A stretch of DNA of 35,600 nt from positions 1-35,600 of the forward strand of contig JAQVHL010000024.1 in the NCBI GenBank assembly GCA_028696185.1, written 5' to 3'. The notes under the pieces are model-generated. The model did not search any database and was not told where the DNA came from. It worked only from the letters and a program-made list of their open reading frames with translations. The stretch is from Halothiobacillaceae bacterium. Its GTDB lineage: Bacteria; Pseudomonadota; Gammaproteobacteria; Halothiobacillales; Halothiobacillaceae. Below, piece after piece: positions 13,003 through 35,600 of this stretch; within the stretch, counting starts at the first letter, position 1; each line of letters begins with the position of its first letter. A program made the position numbers and the translations under genes.

Positions 13003-15609
<2,607 letters not shown>

Positions 15610-27699: not shown

Positions 27700-29280
27700 C
27701 TATTCTGCCGCCGGCTGAGCCTTCAAGGGGCTGGAGTAAGTCGCCAGGGCGTCGCCATTTGCTGCCTTGTCTGCGTGCCTGGGATTGTCGCGCTCCGACA
27801 GCCAGACCAGCATATCGTGGAAGGCACGGATGTTTTCCACATAGCGCGCCGTGTGCTGGCCGTGTGCGAAGCCGTGACGCAGCTTGCGATGCCAGCGCGG
27901 CTCGGAAAGCAAGGGAAGGTGCATGCGCACGTCCTTCCAGCGCTTGGCATTGTGCCCGTTCTCCTCGGTGATCTTGCGCGCATCGTCCAGATGGCCGTGC
28001 CCCATGTTGTAGGACGCCAGCGCCATGTAGGTGCGATCCGGCTCGGGGATGTCGTCCGGCAGCAGGCTGCGCAACTGGGCCAGATAGGCCGCAGCTCCCA
28101 TAATGCTGGCTTCCGGGTCCACCGGATTGCTGATCCCCATGTGCCGCGCGGTGGGCAGGGTGAATTGCATCAAGCCCACCGCCCCGGCGGGAGACACCGC
28201 CTCGGGCTGCCATTTCGACTCCTGATAACCGATGGCGGCGAGCAGACGCCAATCCATGGAATAGCGCTTTCCCGCGGCCTCGAACAGCTTGCGGTAACGG
28301 TGCAGATTGCGCCGTATGTCGCGGATGAACTGCGCCGAGAGCAGGGTATCCATCTCTTCGAACTGATTGTTGTAGCGGTCGAGGAGATCATCAAGACGTC
28401 CGCTCTGGCGCAACTGCTGGAAAAACACAGTAGCGCGCTGATACAGGCTGCGATCCTGCGAGCGCGGGAAAACCCAGGCGTATTGCACAGGCTCACCCAG
28501 ATCGAAGGCCACCTTCAGGGTCGGATTGAACTGCCGGGCCACCTGCACCTCGTTGGAATAGGCAATGGCGTAATTGACCTTGCCCTCTTCGAGCAGATCC
28601 AGCACCTCCATCCCGTCACGCCCGGTATGGCTCTGCACCACAATGTCGGGAAACTCCTCGCTCATCTCGCGCAGCCATTGCTCATGGCTCGCGCCCGAGG
28701 GTGTTTCGATATTGACATTGCCCAGTTGCGCCAGCGTTTCCGGTCGGGACGTGGTATCACGGTAAAGCAGCTGGCGCGTGACCTCCATGTACGGTGGCGT
28801 GAAGCGGAAATGCCGCTCGCGATCCTCGCTCACGGCCAGCCCCGCCGCGGCCAGATGCGCCTTGCCCGTGCGCACCGCCTCGAAAAGCGCGCCCGGATCG
28901 TCGAACAGCACGAACTCCACCCTCACGCCCAGCGATTCGGCAAAAGCGACCGCCAGATCATGCTCCAGCCCGTAGGGCTCCGGCTCGGCCGGGACATACG
29001 TTGTCGGGCTGATGCGCGTCGCCACGCGCAGCGTGCCGTGGCGCAGCACATCCTCCATCTGCGTCTCGCGTGAAAAGGGCAGCGCCGGATGCCAGAGAAA
29101 AACACGCGGCGGCTCGCCCGGATCAACCGGCAGCTCCAGATACATCGACGCCCACCAGATCACCGGCAAAACGAACAGCGCGAGCACCCCCAGCCCGCAG
29201 GTAGAGGCGCCGCAGCGGCGCGGCGCTCCCGGCTGATCGGTTTTGCTGTCGGAAGGCTTATCAACCATTGTGACACTCAT
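27700..29280 (-). CDS. mltF: Membrane-bound lytic murein transglycosylase F
   Basis: A 526-residue envelope enzyme that cleaves peptidoglycan with formation of 1,6-anhydromuramic ends. An N-terminal hydrophobic segment (about 30-48) acts as signal or anchor. A periplasmic solute-binding (SBP_bac_3-like) domain follows at about 82-310 (GTLRVATRISPTTYV), which in MltF acts as a regulatory module. The C-terminal SLT domain has the catalytic Glu354 in GYQESKWQP, AGAVGLMQFT, and ASYNMGHGHLDDAR. The first ATG (29280) and another four codons later (29268) are both possible, since neither has a strong SD. Length is close to E. coli MltF (518). Confidence 0.93.
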   Translation of the reverse strand: MSVTMVDKPSDSKTDQPGAPRRCGASTCGLGVLALFVLPVIWWASMYLELPVDPGEPPRVFLWHPALPFSRETQMEDVLRHGTLRVATRISPTTYVPAEPEPYGLEHDLAVAFAESLGVRVEFVLFDDPGALFEAVRTGKAHLAAAGLAVSEDRERHFRFTPPYMEVTRQLLYRDTTSRPETLAQLGNVNIETPSGASHEQWLREMSEEFPDIVVQSHTGRDGMEVLDLLEEGKVNYAIAYSNEVQVARQFNPTLKVAFDLGEPVQYAWVFPRSQDRSLYQRATVFFQQLRQSGRLDDLLDRYNNQFEEMDTLLSAQFIRDIRRNLHRYRKLFEAAGKRYSMDWRLLAAIGYQESKWQPEAVSPAGAVGLMQFTLPTARHMGISNPVDPEASIMGAAAYLAQLRSLLPDDIPEPDRTYMALASYNMGHGHLDDARKITEENGHNAKRWKDVRMHLPLLSEPRWHRKLRHGFAHGQHTARYVENIRAFHDMLVWLSERDNPRHADKAANGDALATYSSPLKAQPAAE

Positions 29281-29345
29281 GCAGTCTTGTTAAGCTATGC
29301 GCCGTCCTGAAAAGCCGGTAGCGCCTCCGCCCCGGCATCCCCCCC

Positions 29346-29438
29346 GGAGGGGTACCGAAGTGGCCGTAACGGGCTCGACTCGAAATCGAGTTGGGGCTTA
29401 ACCGCCCCACGTGGGTTCGAATCCCACTCCCTCCGCCA
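29346..29438 (+). tRNA. tRNA-Ser (anticodon CGA)
   Basis: A 93-base tRNA of class II with long variable arm. The acceptor stem pairs GGAGGGG (29346-29352) with TCCCTCC, discriminator G and an encoded CCA (29436-29438). The anticodon stem CTCGA/TCGAG (29374-29378, 29386-29390) encloses CGA at 29381-29383, which reads UCG. The T arm is GTGGG-TTCGAAT-CCCAC. It lies at the border between conserved core genes and accessory genes, a position typical of island attachment sites. Confidence 0.97.
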
Positions 29439-29591
29439 ATATTCCGCGCTGCCGGCTCCGGCGCCGCGCCATCTTAGCAGGAATCCTGCCATCCTGCGTG
29501 TAACCCGTTCTGTTATCAGGGAATAGGCCCGTTGGGCAGGCGTAAAGCCGCCTCATTGACCGCCCCGATTCGCCCAAGGTTCCCGAAATCG

Positions 29592-29634
29592 GCTATAACA
29601 AGCTATCGAAAAGCGTTTTTCAATAGCTGTTAGC
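29592..29634 (+). promoter_or_regulatory. Long imperfect palindrome upstream of the WYL regulator
   Basis: The outer arms are GCTATAACAAGCTAT (29592-29606) and ATAGCTGTTAGC (29623-29634), which pair if three bases bulge. Inside them AGCTAT/ATAGCT is perfect, and GAAAA/TTTTC (29608-29621) continues the symmetry around a GCGT centre. It is AT-rich in a GC-rich background and ends 20 bases before the WYL start codon. I infer an operator, possibly bound by the WYL protein itself; a hairpin in the leader is the alternative. The rest of 29439-29591 shows no gene. Confidence 0.6.
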
Positions 29635-29654
29635 AACACTGTGGCGCGAACCCC

Positions 29655-30659
29655 ATGGACGGACTTGAACGTACCTACAAATTACATACCTTGCTCTCCC
29701 GCCATCGCCAGCCGCTTTCCCAGGCCCGGCTGTGCCAGGAGCTCGACTGCTCCCGCGCCACCCTTCACCGCCTCATCGAACGCCTGCGCGACTTCTACGG
29801 CGCCCCCATCCTCAACCGGCGCGGGCGCGGCTATCTCTACGACACCCGCCAAAGCTTCGAACTGCCCGGACTATGGTTCAGCGCCGACGAACTGCAAGCC
29901 ATCCTCGCCGTCCAGCACATCCTCGACGAACTGGAGCCGGGCATCTTTGCCGAACACCTCGCCCCCCTGCGTGAACGGCTGGAAAGCCTGCTGCACAAAG
30001 CCGCCCCCGGCTTCGACGGCGAACGGCTCGCCCACAGCCTGAGCCTGCAACCTGCCTTCCGCCGCCGCTACGCCGGCAACCCCACCCACTTCGCCACCCT
30101 CGTCGCCGCCTGCGTCGAACGGCAACGCGTTTTCATCCGCTACCACGGCCGCGGCCGCAACCAGACGAGCGAACGCGAAATCTCCCCCTGCCGCCTGCTG
30201 CACTACCGCGACAACTGGTACCTCGACGCCTGGTGCCACCGCGAAAACGCCCCCCGACGGTTCTCCATCGACCGCATCCAGCACGCCGAACGACTCGACC
30301 GCCCTGCCGACATACCGCCCGAAGCCAGGGACGACGCAGGGCAAGCCGCCTACGGCATCTTCGCCGGCCCCGCCCGCCACACCGCCATCCTGCGTTTCTC
30401 TGCCGAACGCGCCCGCTGGGTGGCCGATGAAAGCTGGCACCCCGAACAGCAAAACCAATGGCTGCCCGACGGACGCTACGAACTGCGCTTCCCCTACGCC
30501 GACCCTCGTGAACTCATCGGCGACATCCTCCGCCACGGCCACCACGTCGAAGTCATCGCCCCCGACAGCCTGCGTCACGAAGTCACGCAGGAAATTTCAC
30601 GCATGGCCCGAACATACTCAGGATTTGAGACAAACGAGGCGCACACTGAGACAAAGTGA
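29655..30659 (+). CDS. WYL-domain transcriptional regulator
   Basis: A 334-residue regulator with an N-terminal winged helix-turn-helix (about 1-60; LSQARLCQELDCSRATLHR), a WYL domain and a C-terminal WCX-type extension. The namesake residues are W188-Y189-L190 in DNWYLDAW, preceded by RGRNQTSEREISP. WYL domains are thought to bind nucleic acid or nucleotide ligands, and proteins of this architecture (such as the BrxR/CapW group) repress defence operons and their own genes. The gene lies between a tRNA and a cas operon, so control of the neighbouring defence genes is a reasonable inference. The third codon positions are strikingly rich in C compared with the core genes. No clear SD is seen. 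Confidence 0.9.
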   Translation: MDGLERTYKLHTLLSRHRQPLSQARLCQELDCSRATLHRLIERLRDFYGAPILNRRGRGYLYDTRQSFELPGLWFSADELQAILAVQHILDELEPGIFAEHLAPLRERLESLLHKAAPGFDGERLAHSLSLQPAFRRRYAGNPTHFATLVAACVERQRVFIRYHGRGRNQTSEREISPCRLLHYRDNWYLDAWCHRENAPRRFSIDRIQHAERLDRPADIPPEARDDAGQAAYGIFAGPARHTAILRFSAERARWVADESWHPEQQNQWLPDGRYELRFPYADPRELIGDILRHGHHVEVIAPDSLRHEVTQEISRMARTYSGFETNEAHTETK

Positions 30660-30683
30660 ACCCCCAGGGAGGAGAACAACGCC

Positions 30684-31094
30684 ATGCTCACCCGTCGCCA
30701 CGTCCTGCGCCACCTGCTGGCCCTCGCCGGACTCGCCGCCGCCCCCGTCCCGCTGCGCGCCGCGCCCACGCCGCAACCGCCCCTGCGCCTGCGCATCCAG
30801 ACCTCCCCGGTCGCCGGCTTCCAGTACCACCACGGCCCAACACTCTGGGCGCAACTGGCCGAAGGCGACCCCCTCGATTTGATCCGCGAACCCGCCAACC
30901 CCCACGACCCCATGGCCGTGCGCATCGACTGGCAGGGATACAAACTCGGCTACCTCCCGCGCCGCGAAAACCACGCCGTCAGCCAGATGCTGGATCGGGG
31001 GGAACGGATGAGCACGCGCATCGTGCGGTTCGCGGAATCGAGGAATCCGTGGGAACGGGTTGAGGTGGAGGTTGGGCTGGAGATGGTGTCATGA
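30684..31094 (+). CDS. Exported HIRAN-domain protein
   Basis: A 136-residue protein with an N-terminal export signal (TRRHVLRHLLALAGLAAAP, about residues 3-22; the twin arginine suggests Tat but the motif is incomplete) followed by a HIRAN domain. The HIRAN signature is REPANPHDPMAVRI and YKLGYLPRREN. HIRAN domains usually bind DNA 3' ends within helicases, so a free-standing exported copy has no obvious job. SD GGGAGGAG (30668-30675) is strong. It follows the WYL gene after 24 bases, probably in one transcript. Strand composition changes inside the gene near 30985, from C-rich to G-rich. Confidence 0.82.
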   Translation: MLTRRHVLRHLLALAGLAAAPVPLRAAPTPQPPLRLRIQTSPVAGFQYHHGPTLWAQLAEGDPLDLIREPANPHDPMAVRIDWQGYKLGYLPRRENHAVSQMLDRGERMSTRIVRFAESRNPWERVEVEVGLEMVS

Positions 31095-31240
31095 CTGGCA
31101 TTGAGAGCGGCCATCGTTGCGGATCTGGGCCTGACATTCGCAGTGTCCGTCGCTCAGGATGCACCGAGTACGGGGAGCCCCTCTTTTGGGTCAGTGCCGG
31201 ACTCGGTTTCTTGGGGCGGGCGAGGGAGGAGGGGGCATGA
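31091..31240 (+). CDS. Possible small hypothetical protein
   Basis: A 49-codon frame whose ATG overlaps the HIRAN stop (ATGA), ending at 31240. The product has a hydrophobic patch (LFWVSAGLGFLG) but no recognised domain. Only the stop-start overlap supports it; it may equally be noncoding spacer between the HIRAN gene and brnA. Confidence 0.2.
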   Translation: MTGIESGHRCGSGPDIRSVRRSGCTEYGEPLFWVSAGLGFLGRAREEGA

Positions 31241-31268
31241 GTGTTACTGTCGGCCCGGTGCCGCCAAC

Positions 31269-31574
31269 TCATTTTCCTTGGCGGTGCGCCTCCACATATG
31301 CACGCAGCAGCGCATTGATGCGGGACTGGTATCCCCGACCGCCCTCCTTGAACCACTGCAATACATCGGCGTCGATGCGCAAGGTCAACTGCTGCTTGCG
31401 TGGCAAGGGCTTCAAGCCGTGGCGCGCAACAGCGCGAGCGAACTGCTCAGGGGTCGGTTCGGGAATATCGGAGTTATCGATATCCTCGTCGGGCAACTGT
31501 TCCAGCCTTCCCCAGTCAGTTGCGGAAGTGCTCGGAGTAGTGACGCGCGGTTTCTTTGCTGGCTTTGCGGGCAT
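31269..31574 (-). CDS. brnA: BrnA-family antitoxin
   Basis: A 101-residue antitoxin of the BrnA family. The N-terminal half is basic and disordered, then comes the toxin-binding stretch with DSDIPE-like spacing (DIDNSDIPEPTPEQFARAV). The C-terminal ribbon-helix-helix region has KQQLTLRIDADVLQWFKEGGRGYQSRINALLRAYV, given here in family terms by the motifs LTLRID, WFKEGG and YQSRIN. The start at 31574 lies within the 3' end of brnT (59-base overlap), the usual toxin-first arrangement. In known systems BrnA neutralises BrnT and represses the operon. Confidence 0.88.
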   Translation of the reverse strand: MPAKPAKKPRVTTPSTSATDWGRLEQLPDEDIDNSDIPEPTPEQFARAVARHGLKPLPRKQQLTLRIDADVLQWFKEGGRGYQSRINALLRAYVEAHRQGK

Positions 31575-31794
31575 GGATGATGCGGATCGTGTCGTCGGTT
31601 TCGGTATGGGCGACAAGGACTACAAAGTCCCGGAGACGTCCGATGGTTATGAGGCGGTACTCGCGGTACTCGAAGCGAGTGTCCTCATAGCTGAGAGTAT
31701 CACCCTCAAACATGGCAGGCATATCGACGAAATCGATCCCGTGCTTCCGGATGTTGGCGAGACGCTTGTCCTCATCCCATTCGAACTTGGTCAT
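31516..31794 (-). CDS. brnT: BrnT-family ribonuclease toxin
   Basis: A 92-residue toxin of the BrnT family (RelE-like fold), an mRNA-cleaving ribonuclease that halts growth when free. It begins FEWDEDKRLANIRKHGIDF, the family signature, then YREYRLITIGRLRDF and DDTIRIIHARKASKET near the end. The ATG at 31794 gives the standard family length; an earlier ATG at 31824 is unlikely. The gene appears intact. It lies just upstream of and divergent from csb1, with the two operons sharing a 292-base regulatory gap. Confidence 0.9.
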   Translation of the reverse strand: MTKFEWDEDKRLANIRKHGIDFVDMPAMFEGDTLSYEDTRFEYREYRLITIGRLRDFVVLVAHTETDDTIRIIHARKASKETARHYSEHFRN

Positions 31795-32086
31795 AGTGTA
31801 CCTACAAATCGACGTTACGGTCATCCGCTGGTGATCTCGGCGAGATTGTATGGCATGCTATCCAAAATTTATCTATTCACTAGATTTGTATTTAGATTGA
31901 CGATCATTTCTGTGGCAAGTAGCATCTTCAATGCCGACTCAATGCATCGGTCCTCATTGAAGAACTAGATTTGTTTTTAGTTGTTGATAATTAAGTGATT
32001 TTTCCGTGGTTTTGTCCCGGCCTCGTTGACCCTAAGCCGGCATCTGTGACTGCCGCCCACGCCCAAACTGAAGTAAGGAGCGCGAC
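31795..32086. other. AT-rich divergent spacer with a 17-bp direct repeat
   Basis: This 292-base region between brnT and csb1 is the most AT-rich stretch of the window (about 31850-32010). ACTAGATTTGTaTTTAG (31879-31895) is repeated with one change at 31964-31980, 85 bases apart. TTGACG (31897-31902) and TAGCAT (31920-31925), 17 bases apart, are a possible promoter towards csb1. The SD TAAGGAG for csb1 is at 32074-32080. No gene and no CRISPR repeats are visible here. Confidence 0.6.
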
Positions 32087-33334
32087 ATGCATGTTGAAGA
32101 ACTGAATAGGATGGTTTCCAAAGATGCCGCCTTGCGGCGACGCCAAACCTTGCAGCCCGTTGGCGGCAGGGGCGACAAAATTTTTCCGCCAACCTACCCG
32201 CCTTCGGATGCGGAGAAACGGACCGACAGAAACGCGCCGCCGAGACATGTCTTCGAGAAAAGGCGCATCGGCGACAAGGAAATCTGGTGTGTGCTGGTGG
32301 ATAGCGTGCAATCGCAGGCGAACCGGCTCGAGGAATCTCTGTTGGACGCCATCGCCGACGGCGTGACGATTCCGCACGTCGTGGTGGATTTCTCCGGCAG
32401 CAATCTGACCGGGGTAACGCAGATTACCTCGTTGGACGCGCCGCACCGCGTTTATGACGCCATCCTGCGCGACAGTCTGAACAATGGCGCGCCTTTCATG
32501 GCAAGTGACGTTGGTCAGCGGCTCGCAACGGCCAGTTTGAAGGATGCGTCCGCGCTGCTGGAAATCTCGCCCAATGCCCTGTTGTTCGGCGCTTGGCACT
32601 CGACCGGACAAGGTGGTGGGCTGGGGGCGAAGTTCGCACGTTGCCTGACTTCGGAGATCGTGGCTATTGATGTACCGGTGGAAGAGGTCGTGGATAGGCG
32701 CACAGGAGAGATTTCGGTTACGACTTCCGGGCGGCGCACAGGTAGTCGCATGGACCCGTTGGGTGTGTTGCGCAAGGTAGAGATATTCAAAGGCGCCAAT
32801 GGGTGGGCGACGACCGAGGTGGATGCCGGTGCGGGTGCCAAACAGGTCAGACCATCTGAAGTTAACCACGGCAATATCGCACCATCTGTGCAGCCGCTCG
32901 GCATTACCTGCGACCACCTCGAACACAGCTTCGTTCTGAGCTTTGCGGCTTTGCGCCACCTGCGATTTGGTGGAGACGCCAGCAAAGATGCCGCTGGCCG
33001 TGCATTGCTCGCCGCGCTGGGAGTGCTGGCGCTCACCGAGCAGGACGCTCGCGGCTATGCTCTGCGTTCGCGTTGCGATCTGGTATGCGATGGTGCGACT
33101 CCTCTGGAGCTCGTTCATGCGGATGGCTCTACCAAAGAGGTAGTGGTTGACCGTGAGGCAGCACGCAAGCTCTACAACGAGGCATTTGAGGAAGCCAAGA
33201 GTAAAGGCTTCACGCTATCTGCCAAGACCGAGTTGAAGCCGCAAGAAAAACTCGTCGAGATCGTGCGTCGGAGCCAGGAACTGGCCCTGAGTGGCGCAGG
33301 CGAATCGGAGGACGACGATGGCGCTGGCACTTGA
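32087..33334 (+). CDS. csb1: Type I-G (I-U) CRISPR-associated protein Csb1/Cas7
   Basis: A 415-residue protein matching the Csb1 (GSU0053) family, the Cas7 backbone subunit of type I-G Cascade, which would coat the crRNA spacer. Family-like segments are FSGSNLTGVTQITSLDAPHR, LFGAWHSTG, DPLGV..VEIFK, and EVNHGNIAPS (258-267), a strongly conserved block. The C-terminus is acidic (ESEDDDGAG). SD TAAGGAG lies six bases before the ATG. The 3' end overlaps csb2 by 17 bases, so the two are translated together. Subunit contacts and RNA binding are known for the family, not shown here. Confidence 0.9.
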   Translation: MHVEELNRMVSKDAALRRRQTLQPVGGRGDKIFPPTYPPSDAEKRTDRNAPPRHVFEKRRIGDKEIWCVLVDSVQSQANRLEESLLDAIADGVTIPHVVVDFSGSNLTGVTQITSLDAPHRVYDAILRDSLNNGAPFMASDVGQRLATASLKDASALLEISPNALLFGAWHSTGQGGGLGAKFARCLTSEIVAIDVPVEEVVDRRTGEISVTTSGRRTGSRMDPLGVLRKVEIFKGANGWATTEVDAGAGAKQVRPSEVNHGNIAPSVQPLGITCDHLEHSFVLSFAALRHLRFGGDASKDAAGRALLAALGVLALTEQDARGYALRSRCDLVCDGATPLELVHADGSTKEVVVDREAARKLYNEAFEEAKSKGFTLSAKTELKPQEKLVEIVRRSQELALSGAGESEDDDGAGT

Positions 33335-34811
33335 GATCGAATATCTCGGCGGCGTGTGTTTTTCCGCGATAAGCCCGGACAGCGAAGAACCCGATTGGCC
33401 GCCGCAGCCAGACCGCGTCTTTTCGGCATTGGTGGCGACTTGGGGCACGCATGGTGGTTTGAAAGAAGCGCAGTCCGAGCGCGAGGCGCTGGAATGGTTG
33501 GAAAGACAATTGCCGCCTATGTACGAGGCATCCGATGCCGATGCACGTACCACACCTTCGGTGTTCGTGCCACCGAATGATCCGCGCACCGACAAAGCAA
33601 AGAATGCCGCAGGCGTCTTGCCAGCCATGCGCAGTCGCCAACCTCGGCGTTTCCCGGCTGCCAGACCGCACGATCCCATCGTGCGTTATATCTGGAACGA
33701 AGAGCCCGACGAAGACGCATTCAACGCGCTCGACCGATTGGCACGAGACACTCCGTATGTCGGCCATTCGTCCAGTTTGACGCGCTGCCGATTTACGCGA
33801 ATGGAATCGCCATCTATAGAAACGATGCGGGAGCCGAAACGCCGTGTCTATGAGGGCCGATTGAAAGAGCTTTGCGAAAGTCACGCTCGCTTCGTGCAAA
33901 CAGCGGACAAGAAAGACCGGCCTCGCCCCGGTGCTCCGATGACGGCCAAGCCGCAAACACCTGAATCACGCCGCAATGTATTCTCCGACCGCTGGTTGGT
34001 ACTGGAGCATGTCGGTGGCGAAATGCCGGACATGCGCGCGGCTGCCATCGTTGCGCGCGGCATCCGCACCGCGCTGATGAGTGGTTACGGTCAAATCGGC
34101 GAAGCGATTCCTGCCGTCGTCAGCGGGCATGAAGATGGTGGCAGCCCGGCCCGTGCGCCTCACATGGCGGTTGTGCCCTTGAGCTTCACCGGATTTGCGC
34201 ACGCTGACGGGCGTGTGCTTGGCTTTGCGCTGGTTCCGCCAACAAGTTTTGACCTGCTCGAAGACGAAACCTTTCGCAAAGTGCTGCGGAAACTCGCACC
34301 GTTGAATGACGATTACGGGCGGCGCGTGCTGGAAGTGAAGTCCGTGCAAGGCGCGGCGGCAAACCAGTCCTTCGCGCTCAAGTTCTCGCCATCGTTCGAG
34401 GTTCCACCGAGTTTCCGCTCCTCGCTCAAGCCTGCGATCTATACCGACGCTGCCTGTCGTTTTGCCACAGTCACGCCTATCGTTCTTGATCGCTATCTCA
34501 AAAAGCAGGGCGAAGCGCGCATCGAAGAAATCTCGGAGTTGGTCGCCGCTGCCTGTGAACGCATCAGCTTGCCGCGACCCATCGCCGTGTTCCCGGACAA
34601 ACATTCCGCCTTGCAAGGTGCTGTCTCTGCCTATCCGTCGGGTCGCGGACCAGCGTGGATGAACTGGCGGTTGCCGGATTCGATGGCGGGGCGGCAACTG
34701 ACGCACGCGGTCATCGAATTTTCTGAGCCAGTCGAAGGCCCGTTGTTGCTGGGTGCGGGGCGCTTTCTTGGTATGGGGCTGTGCCGTTCGCTCGGTGGGG
34801 AGAAGGGGTGA
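33318..34811 (+). CDS. csb2: Type I-G (I-U) CRISPR-associated protein Csb2 (Cas5/Cas6-like)
   Basis: A 497-residue protein of the GSU0054/Csb2 family, the signature of subtype I-U (now I-G), regarded as a Cas5-Cas6 type RAMP protein that would process crRNA and hold its end. The N-terminal segment WPPQPDRVFSALVATWG is typical. The C-terminus has the glycine-rich RAMP loop GPLLLGAGRFLGMGLC (474-489). H and K/R residues for cleavage cannot be assigned without alignment. The ATG at 33318 has SD GGAGG (33307-33311) and lies inside the end of csb1; the longer frame from 33291 is less likely. The stop overlaps cas3 (TGATG). Confidence 0.9.
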   Translation: MALALEIEYLGGVCFSAISPDSEEPDWPPQPDRVFSALVATWGTHGGLKEAQSEREALEWLERQLPPMYEASDADARTTPSVFVPPNDPRTDKAKNAAGVLPAMRSRQPRRFPAARPHDPIVRYIWNEEPDEDAFNALDRLARDTPYVGHSSSLTRCRFTRMESPSIETMREPKRRVYEGRLKELCESHARFVQTADKKDRPRPGAPMTAKPQTPESRRNVFSDRWLVLEHVGGEMPDMRAAAIVARGIRTALMSGYGQIGEAIPAVVSGHEDGGSPARAPHMAVVPLSFTGFAHADGRVLGFALVPPTSFDLLEDETFRKVLRKLAPLNDDYGRRVLEVKSVQGAAANQSFALKFSPSFEVPPSFRSSLKPAIYTDAACRFATVTPIVLDRYLKKQGEARIEEISELVAAACERISLPRPIAVFPDKHSALQGAVSAYPSGRGPAWMNWRLPDSMAGRQLTHAVIEFSEPVEGPLLLGAGRFLGMGLCRSLGGEKG

Positions 34812-35600
34812 TGCTGACCGTCAATGACTTTGCGGAATTCTTCAGGGAAGTTCACGGTGTTGATCCTTTCCCGTGGCAAAAACGCCTGCTGGCAAAGGTC
34901 GGGCAGGGCGGTAAATGGCCCGCGACGCTGGATTTGCCCACGGGCTCAGGCAAAACAGCAGCCATAGACATTGCAGTGTTCCACCTTGCGTTACAAGCCG
35001 ACCGCGGCTCTGAACGCGAGGCGCCAGTTCGTATTGCCTTCGTTGTGGATCGCCGACTGGTGGTGGATGACGCTTTCGGGCGCGCGCAAAAAATCACGGA
35101 CGCCTTAGATTGGTCTTTACTGACGGATGGCGATGCCGAAAATCTCAAGAAGAAGTTTCAAGACGAGACGCAGCATGAACGCACTGAAACACTGGATCGT
35201 ATTCGTCAAGGGCGAGTAGTTCGATCTGTTGCTGCAAAGCTCAAGTCCCTTTCTGGTGACGGACCGCCGCTGATCACGCGCCGGTTGCGCGGCGGCATCC
35301 CGCGCGAGGAAGATTGGGCACGCACGCCTTCGCAACCGACGGTCCTGTGTTCGACGGTGGACCAAGTCGGTTCACGCCTGCTGTTTCGCGGTTACGGCGT
35401 TTCCGATTCCATGAAGCCTGTACATGCCGGACTGGTTGGTTCGGACTGCCTGATTCTGCTGGACGAGGCTCATTTGGCCGAGCCGTTCCGCCAAACGCTC
35501 GAATGGGCACAGCTTTACCGCAGCGATAAATGGCGCCAAAGCACGTATGCCGCGCCTTTCAGCGTTGCCTTGTTGACTGCGACGCCTGGCGCTGCGGCGG
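34811..35600 (+). CDS. cas3: Cas3 helicase, type I-G (partial, runs off the right edge)
   Basis: The first 263 codons of a DEAD/DEAH superfamily 2 helicase. Walker A is LPTGSGKT with K48, Walker B is LILLDEAH (D218-H221), and motif III is LTATP (T256-P259). The frame starts at the ATG overlapping the csb2 stop (TGATG) and stays open to the last base. No HD nuclease motif occurs before the helicase, which fits the type I-U/I-G form where the HD domain follows the helicase; the C-terminal part lies outside the window. It would unwind and degrade DNA after Cascade binding. Confidence 0.88.
   Translation, partial: MLTVNDFAEFFREVHGVDPFPWQKRLLAKVGQGGKWPATLDLPTGSGKTAAIDIAVFHLALQADRGSEREAPVRIAFVVDRRLVVDDAFGRAQKITDALDWSLLTDGDAENLKKKFQDETQHERTETLDRIRQGRVVRSVAAKLKSLSGDGPPLITRRLRGGIPREEDWARTPSQPTVLCSTVDQVGSRLLFRGYGVSDSMKPVHAGLVGSDCLILLDEAHLAEPFRQTLEWAQLYRSDKWRQSTYAAPFSVALLTATPGAAA

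What the first reader, a model, noticed from the sequence alone, without database searches (positions are those of the whole stretch)
32087..35600. Left end of a type I-G (I-U) CRISPR-Cas operon in the order csb1-csb2-cas3
Three overlapping genes (17-base overlap, then TGATG) form a tightly coupled effector operon. Seen directly: Csb1 motif EVNHGNIAPS, Csb2 glycine-rich loop, and Cas3 Walker A, DEAH and TATP without an N-terminal HD. Type I-G is one of the rarer and less studied type I subtypes. The gene order differs from Geobacter sulfurreducens, where I recall cas3 and csx17 preceding csb1. The adaptation genes and array must be outside the window.
Basis: partly seen in the sequence, partly recalled or inferred. 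Interest (0 to 1): 0.75.

Follow-up and report, generated by a model that had tools for sequence, protein, structure and literature searches.

The report
Type I-G CRISPR operon, apparently self-repressing
The contig ends inside a real but otherwise ordinary type I-G CRISPR immune operon; just in front of it lies a tiny decayed CRISPR unit whose guide matches the operon's own predicted promoter beside a proper target motif, so the immune system probably switches its own genes down, a trick shown so far in other CRISPR types but, in the papers I could search, not in type I-G.

Summary
csb1 (32087-33334), csb2 (33318-34811) and the first 263 codons of cas3 (34811 to the contig end) match the type I-G models. 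The contig stops at 35600, and no other piece of this locus (rest of cas3, large subunit, Cas4-Cas1, array) was found in the 2.9-Mb assembly. In relatives with this gene order, including the closest cas3 relative, cas3 is followed by a 320-390-aa protein (NF049934), a short relative of Csx17, not by full-length Csx17. The order csb1-csb2-cas3-cas8u1 is published, so it is not unusual. The locus probably starts at a WYL regulator (29655), found in no other sampled genome of the order. New: between brnT and csb1 lies a two-repeat degenerate I-G mini-CRISPR (31928-32032). Its spacer matches a site 85 nt upstream (31879-31897) from spacer nt 1, next to a TTC PAM; within 19 nt it differs only at positions 12 and 18. 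The site overlaps the predicted promoter. Three other I-G loci have the same arrangement, Thermus plasmids a weaker one; seven first-round loci do not. Best explanation: a CreR-type RNA that directs I-G Cascade to repress its own operon (untested).

The parts
29655..30659 (+). HTH_11-WYL-WCX regulator; probable left end of the acquired locus
   Evidence: PF13280, PF25583, PF08279. 45% identical to the WYL protein next to the I-G operon in L027 and 46% to the one beside cas3 in L058; absent from the 26 other sampled genomes of the order at E<=1e-20.
30684..31094 (+). HIRAN-domain protein with a signal-peptide-like N-terminus; role unknown
   Evidence: PF08797 62.7 bits.
31269..31616 (-). brnA antitoxin
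   Evidence: PF14384 70.5 bits.
31516..31824 (-). brnT toxin, divergent to csb1 (the true start may be the ATG at 31794)
   Evidence: PF04365 75.9 bits, aligned from residue 16.
31876..31914 (+). PAM TTC (31876-31878) and protospacer of the mini-CRISPR; matched stretch 31879-31897
   Evidence: Spacer nt 1-19 match except positions 12 and 18. 15/15 of the scored positions; 0 of 300 shuffles; chance expectation about 7e-8 for one spacer in this region.
31897..31925 (+). predicted sigma-70-like promoter TTGACG-17-TAGCAT, overlapped by the protospacer
   Evidence: 9 of 12 consensus matches; the only such site in 29000-32300, where shuffles give 0.8: a weak prediction on its own.
31928..31963 (+). 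degenerate repeat psiR1 (ends ...GGTCCTCATTGAAGA)
   Evidence: 3 mismatches in the 15-nt tail CGGCCTCATTGAAGC of I-G repeats from relatives; 5' half diverged.
31964..31996 (+). spacer ACTAGATTTGTTTTTAGTTG..., about 33 nt
   Evidence: Lies between the two degenerate repeats.
31997..32032 (+). degenerate repeat psiR2 (ends ...CGGCCTCGTTGACCC); weak hairpin
   Evidence: 3 mismatches in the 15-nt tail, 69 nt after psiR1 (I-G period 72-75); hairpin only -5.2 kcal/mol.
32087..33334 (+). csb1 (cas7g), backbone subunit
   Evidence: TIGR02570, PF09617; the family profile finds Cas7 of PDB 8ane at E=1.5e-4.
33318..34811 (+). csb2 (cas5-cas6 fusion), crRNA processing subunit
   Evidence: TIGR02165 304 bits; His463 near the C-terminus is invariant in 9 of 9 homologues.
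34811..35600 (+). cas3g, N-terminal helicase part only; cut by the contig end
   Evidence: TIGR02621 positions 1-214 of 854, 282 bits; contig ends at 35600.

Best explanation
This is the 5' part of a type I-G CRISPR-Cas interference operon of the csb1-csb2-cas3 order, acquired together with a WYL regulator. Its leader carries a CreR-like mini-CRISPR. Inferred mechanism: a transcript through 31928-32032 is cut by Csb2 at psiR1 (and psiR2) into a crRNA-like RNA. Csb1, Csb2 and a short Cas8g (a gene beyond the contig end) load it. The complex binds the TTC-flanked site at 31879-31914, where pairing is limited to about the first 19 nt. That blocks the promoter that makes both the RNA and the cas mRNA. 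Pairing is probably too short to trigger destruction by Cas3. Ordinary crRNAs, or anti-CRISPR proteins, would compete the repressor away and raise cas expression. Shown here: the genes, the degenerate repeats, the PAM and the self-match, and its recurrence at other I-G loci. Inferred: transcription, processing, binding, repression, and the identity of the missing large subunit.
For: Gene identities. Two tails of the I-G repeat 69 nt apart directly before csb1. The spacer matches from its first nucleotide a TTC-flanked site 85 nt upstream, mismatched within 19 nt only at positions 12 and 18; the first hit came from a plain contiguous-seed scan. TTN is the I-G PAM (PMC9638904). A fixed-rule scan finds the same arrangement at L015 (14 of 15 positions, TTC), L025 (13 of 15, TTG) and L056 (12 of 15, TTC), and a weaker one in the Thermus JL-18 plasmid (13 of 15, TTC, repeat tail only 5 of 8), repeated in four of six further Thermus plasmids. 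300 shuffles of 12 regions give on average 0.5 loci with a hit (maximum 3); observed 5. The summed score of the window, L015, L025 and L056 hits is never reached by shuffles of their own regions. Among 406 tiles of 700 nt, hits with repeat tail >=7/8 and >=12/15 matches occur only at these four leaders. Targets overlap, abut or lie within a few bases of a promoter-like -35 in the window, L015, L056 and L023; none was called at L025. psiR2 of L015, L025 and L056 keeps the repeat hairpin while psiR1 does not, as described for CreA (PMC9458426).
Against: No transcript, processing or repression data exist. The window promoter is only a weak consensus match and psiR2 has a poor hairpin. The rest of the effector and any I-G array are missing from the assembly, so the system might not work in this genome. 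Seven of the twelve first-round loci and the three Streptomyces and one Cereibacter plasmids show no such element. The scoring rule was set after seeing the window hit, so that hit is not an independent test of the rule. Two Thermus plasmids lack the match. The site also lies upstream of brnT.
Confidence: 0.72

Rival explanations
1. The mini-CRISPR represses the divergent brnT toxin promoter (a CrePA-like addiction or alarm module), so that loss or inhibition of the effector releases the BrnT ribonuclease.
For: brnT starts at 31794 or 31824 and is transcribed away from the same intergenic region, so the protospacer lies about 55-120 nt upstream of it. CrePA modules exist (PMC13131331, PMC12737573).
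Against: The promoter scan finds no site on the minus strand there. No toxin gene was found between target and mini-CRISPR at the other loci with the arrangement. brnA already supplies an antitoxin.
Confidence: 0.12
2. An ordinary I-G operon with a decayed, non-functional array remnant in its leader; the spacer match is a leftover of a local DNA duplication.
For: Both repeats are degenerate, psiR2 barely folds in the window, and the contig lacks the rest of the system.
Against: The match starts exactly at spacer nt 1 with a TTC PAM and fades after nt 19; unrelated sequences at three other loci do the same. A plain duplication predicts neither.
Confidence: 0.13
3. A CreTA-like unit: the target is the promoter of a small toxic RNA.
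For: CreTA uses the same anatomy (PMC9458426); in L015 and L056 a strong hairpin follows the targeted promoter (seen by eye).
Against: In the window the predicted start of transcription falls at psiR1, leaving no room for a toxin RNA between promoter and repeat.
Confidence: 0.03

Closest known systems
Type I-G (formerly I-U) CRISPR-Cas, Thioalkalivibrio sulfidiphilus / Geobacter layout (PMC9638904)
   Same: csb1, csb2 and cas3 without N-terminal HD; toxin-antitoxin genes nearby; I-G repeats of relatives are 36 nt.
   Different: There the order is cas3-cas8g(csx17)-csb1-csb2; here csb1-csb2-cas3, and relatives have a 320-390-aa NF049934 protein after cas3.
Type I-G1/I-G2 of myxobacteria, csb1-csb2-cas3-cas8u1 or -csx17 (PMC11237760)
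   Same: Same order; a WYL-domain regulator is also discussed there; repeats 36 nt ending TTGAAGC, partly in remote arrays.
   Different: No mini-CRISPR was seen in the passages I read.
CreR, Cas-regulating RNAs of types I-B, I-E and V-A (Liu et al. 2023, cited in PMC13131331)
   Same: Mini-CRISPR near the cas operon whose spacer partly matches the cas promoter.
   Different: Here type I-G, with Csb2 as the processing enzyme; in the window the element sits in the leader of csb1 itself.
CreTA / CrePA (PMC9458426, PMC12737573)
   Same: Degenerate repeats, limited complementarity, TTC PAM in haloarchaeal CreTA.
   Different: No toxin RNA fits between the predicted promoter and psiR1; a toxin gene (brnT) lies on the other side and is not excluded.

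Membership tests
Type I-G CRISPR-Cas | csb1 (Cas7g) | tested here: met
   TIGR02570 and PF09617 over cut-off
Type I-G CRISPR-Cas | csb2 (Cas5-Cas6 fusion) | tested here: met
   TIGR02165 304 bits, full length
Type I-G CRISPR-Cas | cas3g without N-terminal HD, HD at the C-terminus | tested here: inconclusive
   N-terminal quarter matches TIGR02621; the C-terminus lies beyond the contig end
Type I-G CRISPR-Cas | large subunit (Csx17 or short Cas8) | tested here: inconclusive
   Neither TIGR04113 nor NF049934 matches in the assembly, but the contig ends before the expected place
Type I-G CRISPR-Cas | cas4-cas1 fusion, cas2 and 36-nt repeat array | tested here: inconclusive
   Cas1 hits in G000 are only an RT-Cas1 (C78) and a Cas1 beside an I-E-like array (C104); no I-G array pattern. 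Present in relatives
CreR | one or two degenerate repeats of the cognate type near the cas operon | tested here: met
   Two tails, 3 mismatches in 15 each, 69 nt apart; psiR2 hairpin weak
CreR | spacer with limited complementarity beside a PAM | tested here: met
   TTC; 17 of the first 19 nt; shuffle and tile controls
CreR | target lies in the cas promoter | tested here: inconclusive
   Overlaps a weak predicted promoter upstream of csb1
CreR | RNA is made, bound by the effector and represses cas | not testable with these tools
   Needs RNA and mutants
CrePA | the repressed promoter is that of a toxin gene | tested here: inconclusive
   brnT diverges from the same region but no minus-strand promoter was called

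The most novel reading that the evidence does not exclude
Type I-G systems commonly carry built-in CreR RNAs that use the small I-G Cascade for autorepression, and in this locus one RNA-guided site controls both the cas operon and a neighbouring BrnTA toxin-antitoxin pair.
Probability: 0.12. Interest if true: 0.75.

Novelty: new member of a known kind. Interest (0 to 1): 0.5.

Why it matters
Type I-G is called the least understood type I subtype (PMC9638904). A natural guide RNA with a defined target, PAM and limited pairing would give a ready test of how I-G Cascade binds without destroying DNA and of how its genes are regulated. It would also extend CreR autorepression from types I-B, I-E and V-A to I-G. 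As a plain type I-G operon the finding is ordinary.

Tried and rejected
(1) Completing the locus: searches of G000 for the rest of cas3, Csx17, NF049934, Cas1 and I-G arrays found nothing belonging to it; the contig-end sequence has no other copy in G000 and no match in viral contigs. (2) An idea that L015 and L017 are array-less orphan effectors: rejected, both genomes have I-G arrays elsewhere. (3) AlphaFold model of the NF049934 protein from three sequences: pLDDT 37, useless. (4) Mapping the catalytic His of Csb2 (H503 in T. sulfidiphilus) on a solved chain: no Csb2 chain was found in the PDB set; the invariant His463 is only a candidate. (5) The NF049934 family as unrelated to Cas8: rejected, its profile finds PDB 8b2x Csx17 (E=4e-4) in two colinear stretches, and its N-terminus aligns with Csx17. 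(6) Non-TT PAMs in the self-match scan: no match above 12 of 15. (7) Type I-G csb2 in annotated phages: none.

Full report
OBSERVATION. The window is the whole contig G000:C50 (35600 nt) of a 2.92-Mb, 112-contig genome. Three genes at its right end match type I-G models: csb1 32087-33334 (TIGR02570, PF09617), csb2 33318-34811 (TIGR02165, 304 bits) and the N-terminal quarter of cas3g from 34811 (TIGR02621 positions 1-214).

WHAT LIES BEYOND. Nothing more of the locus is in the assembly: no further piece of I-G cas3, no Csx17 (a model that does find Csx17 in two other genomes), no NF049934 protein, no Cas4-Cas1 and no array with the I-G repeat tail. The genome has two other Cas1 genes. One is an RT-Cas1 beside a Card1-like gene and a 35-nt-repeat array, probably type III; the other lies next to a long array of 61-nt period, probably type I-E. 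The closest cas3 relative, in another family of the same phylum (83% DNA identity over 193 nt), runs cas3 - NF049934 protein - cas4g/cas1g - cas2-like gene - array of 36-nt repeats ending CGGCCTCATTGAAGC. G027 and G367 are similar; in G367 the cas4-cas1 reading frame is broken. The order csb1-csb2-cas3-NF049934 also stands in Acidobacteriota and Vicinamibacterales genomes and on Thermus and Azotobacter plasmids. The NF049934 family is related to the Csx17 large subunit: its profile finds PDB 8b2x_M at E=4e-4 in two colinear stretches, and its N-terminus aligns with Csx17. This order was described as csb1-csb2-cas3-cas8u1 in myxobacteria (PMC11237760), and a Bifidobacterium locus without cas8u2 and with cas3 after cas5/6 is also reported (PMC7284854). 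So the expected next gene is a short Cas8, not csx17, and the order is not new. Some relatives keep their arrays far from the effector genes (G424, G425).

LEFT END. The gene at 27700-29280 has homologues in all 27 sampled genomes of the order. csb2 and the WYL regulator at 29655-30659 occur only in G000 among them. WYL proteins also stand next to I-G genes in L027, L058, L030, L055 and L089. The acquired segment therefore probably begins near 29655 and includes a HIRAN protein and brnTA. G+C falls from about 0.64 to 0.56-0.60 only from about 31500 on.

THE MINI-CRISPR. Reading the brnT-csb1 gap showed two copies of the I-G repeat tail, GGTCCTCATTGAAGA and CGGCCTCGTTGACCC, 69 nt apart, each with 3 mismatches to CGGCCTCATTGAAGC. 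The sequence after the first copy, ACTAGATTTGTTTTTAGTTG, recurs at 31879 behind TTC as ACTAGATTTGTATTTAGATT: the first 19 nt agree except at 12 and 18 and similarity is lost from nt 20. TTN is the PAM of type I-G (PMC9638904). That every sixth base of a type I guide is not read is established for other type I effectors (my own knowledge, not tested for I-G). The site overlaps the one predicted promoter in front of csb1 (TTGACG-17-TAGCAT), which is a weak prediction.

CONTROLS AND RECURRENCE. I then fixed a rule (repeat tail >=5/8, TTN, >=12 of the 15 scored positions among the first 17) and scanned 12 I-G leaders. Five have a hit: the window 15/15, L015 14/15, L023 13/15, L025 13/15, L056 12/15. 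In 300 shuffles of all regions a mean of 0.5 and at most 3 loci have a hit, and the summed scores of the window, L015, L025 and L056 are never reached by shuffles of their own regions. By match count alone the L056 hit is not unusual (20 of 300 shuffles); its support comes from the 7/8 tail and the second repeat. In 406 tiles of 700 nt, hits with tail >=7/8 are only these four; weaker hits with a poorer tail do occur by chance or within true arrays. At these four loci a second repeat follows after 69-72 nt; in L015, L025 and L056 it keeps the repeat hairpin (-13 kcal/mol) while the first does not. The Thermus case has a poorer tail (5/8) but lies beside a good csb1 promoter and recurs in four of six further plasmids. 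The scored positions 6, 12 and 18 were left free by the rule, so their mismatches (14 of 15) are expected either way and are not evidence. The rule was chosen after the window hit, so the window is a discovery case and the others are the test. Loci without a hit: L017, L027, L030, L055, L024, L026, L058, three Streptomyces plasmids, one Cereibacter plasmid and two Thermus plasmids.

MECHANISM. The best reading is CreR: a crRNA-like RNA, processed by Csb2, guides the I-G effector to its own promoter with pairing too short for destruction. CreR was shown for types I-B, I-E and V-A (PMC13131331); a search of the library for CreR together with I-G gave nothing, but the original CreR paper is not held, so it may list I-G loci. 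A role on the divergent brnT promoter cannot be excluded. All steps after the DNA match are inferred.

VERDICT.

Noticed in passing
G000:C78 (L013 7574-15017): Probable type III locus with an RT-Cas1 fusion, a Card1-like CARF nuclease, a possible Cas6 and two blocks of a 35-nt-repeat array.
   Followed up: partly
G000:C104 (L012 1-8700): Cas1 (306 aa) and Cas2-like gene followed by an array of about 70 repeats of 61-nt period (I-E-like repeat), interrupted by other sequence.
   Followed up: partly
L055 (IMG/VR contig, 16.8 kb): Phage-like genes (AAA_24, DUF3799, RusA) next to a WYL regulator and csb1-csb2-cas3: a possibly virus-borne I-G effector.
   Followed up: partly
G425:C1, array 5238078-5244431 and operon in L017 (about 0.5 Mb): A long I-G array (about 85 repeats) lies some 4.7 Mb from the I-G effector operon in the same chromosome.
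   Followed up: partly
L025 (Methylomagnum plasmid pRS11DPr1): I-G operon annotated in pieces (csb1 and cas3 split), with two intact repeats at 14941-15048 and transposase genes around.
   Followed up: no
L023, L080-L082, L086 upstream of csb1: A hairpin GTCCTCC-GTGA-GGAGGAC just before the csb1 start could hide its ribosome binding site; strong hairpins also follow the promoters in L015 and L056.
   Followed up: no
window 30684-31094: HIRAN-domain protein with a signal-peptide-like start beside the WYL gene; purpose unknown.
   Followed up: no
L029 1-1500: In the closest relative the 5' part of cas3 is rearranged next to a transposase-like gene; csb1 and csb2 were not found there.
   Followed up: no
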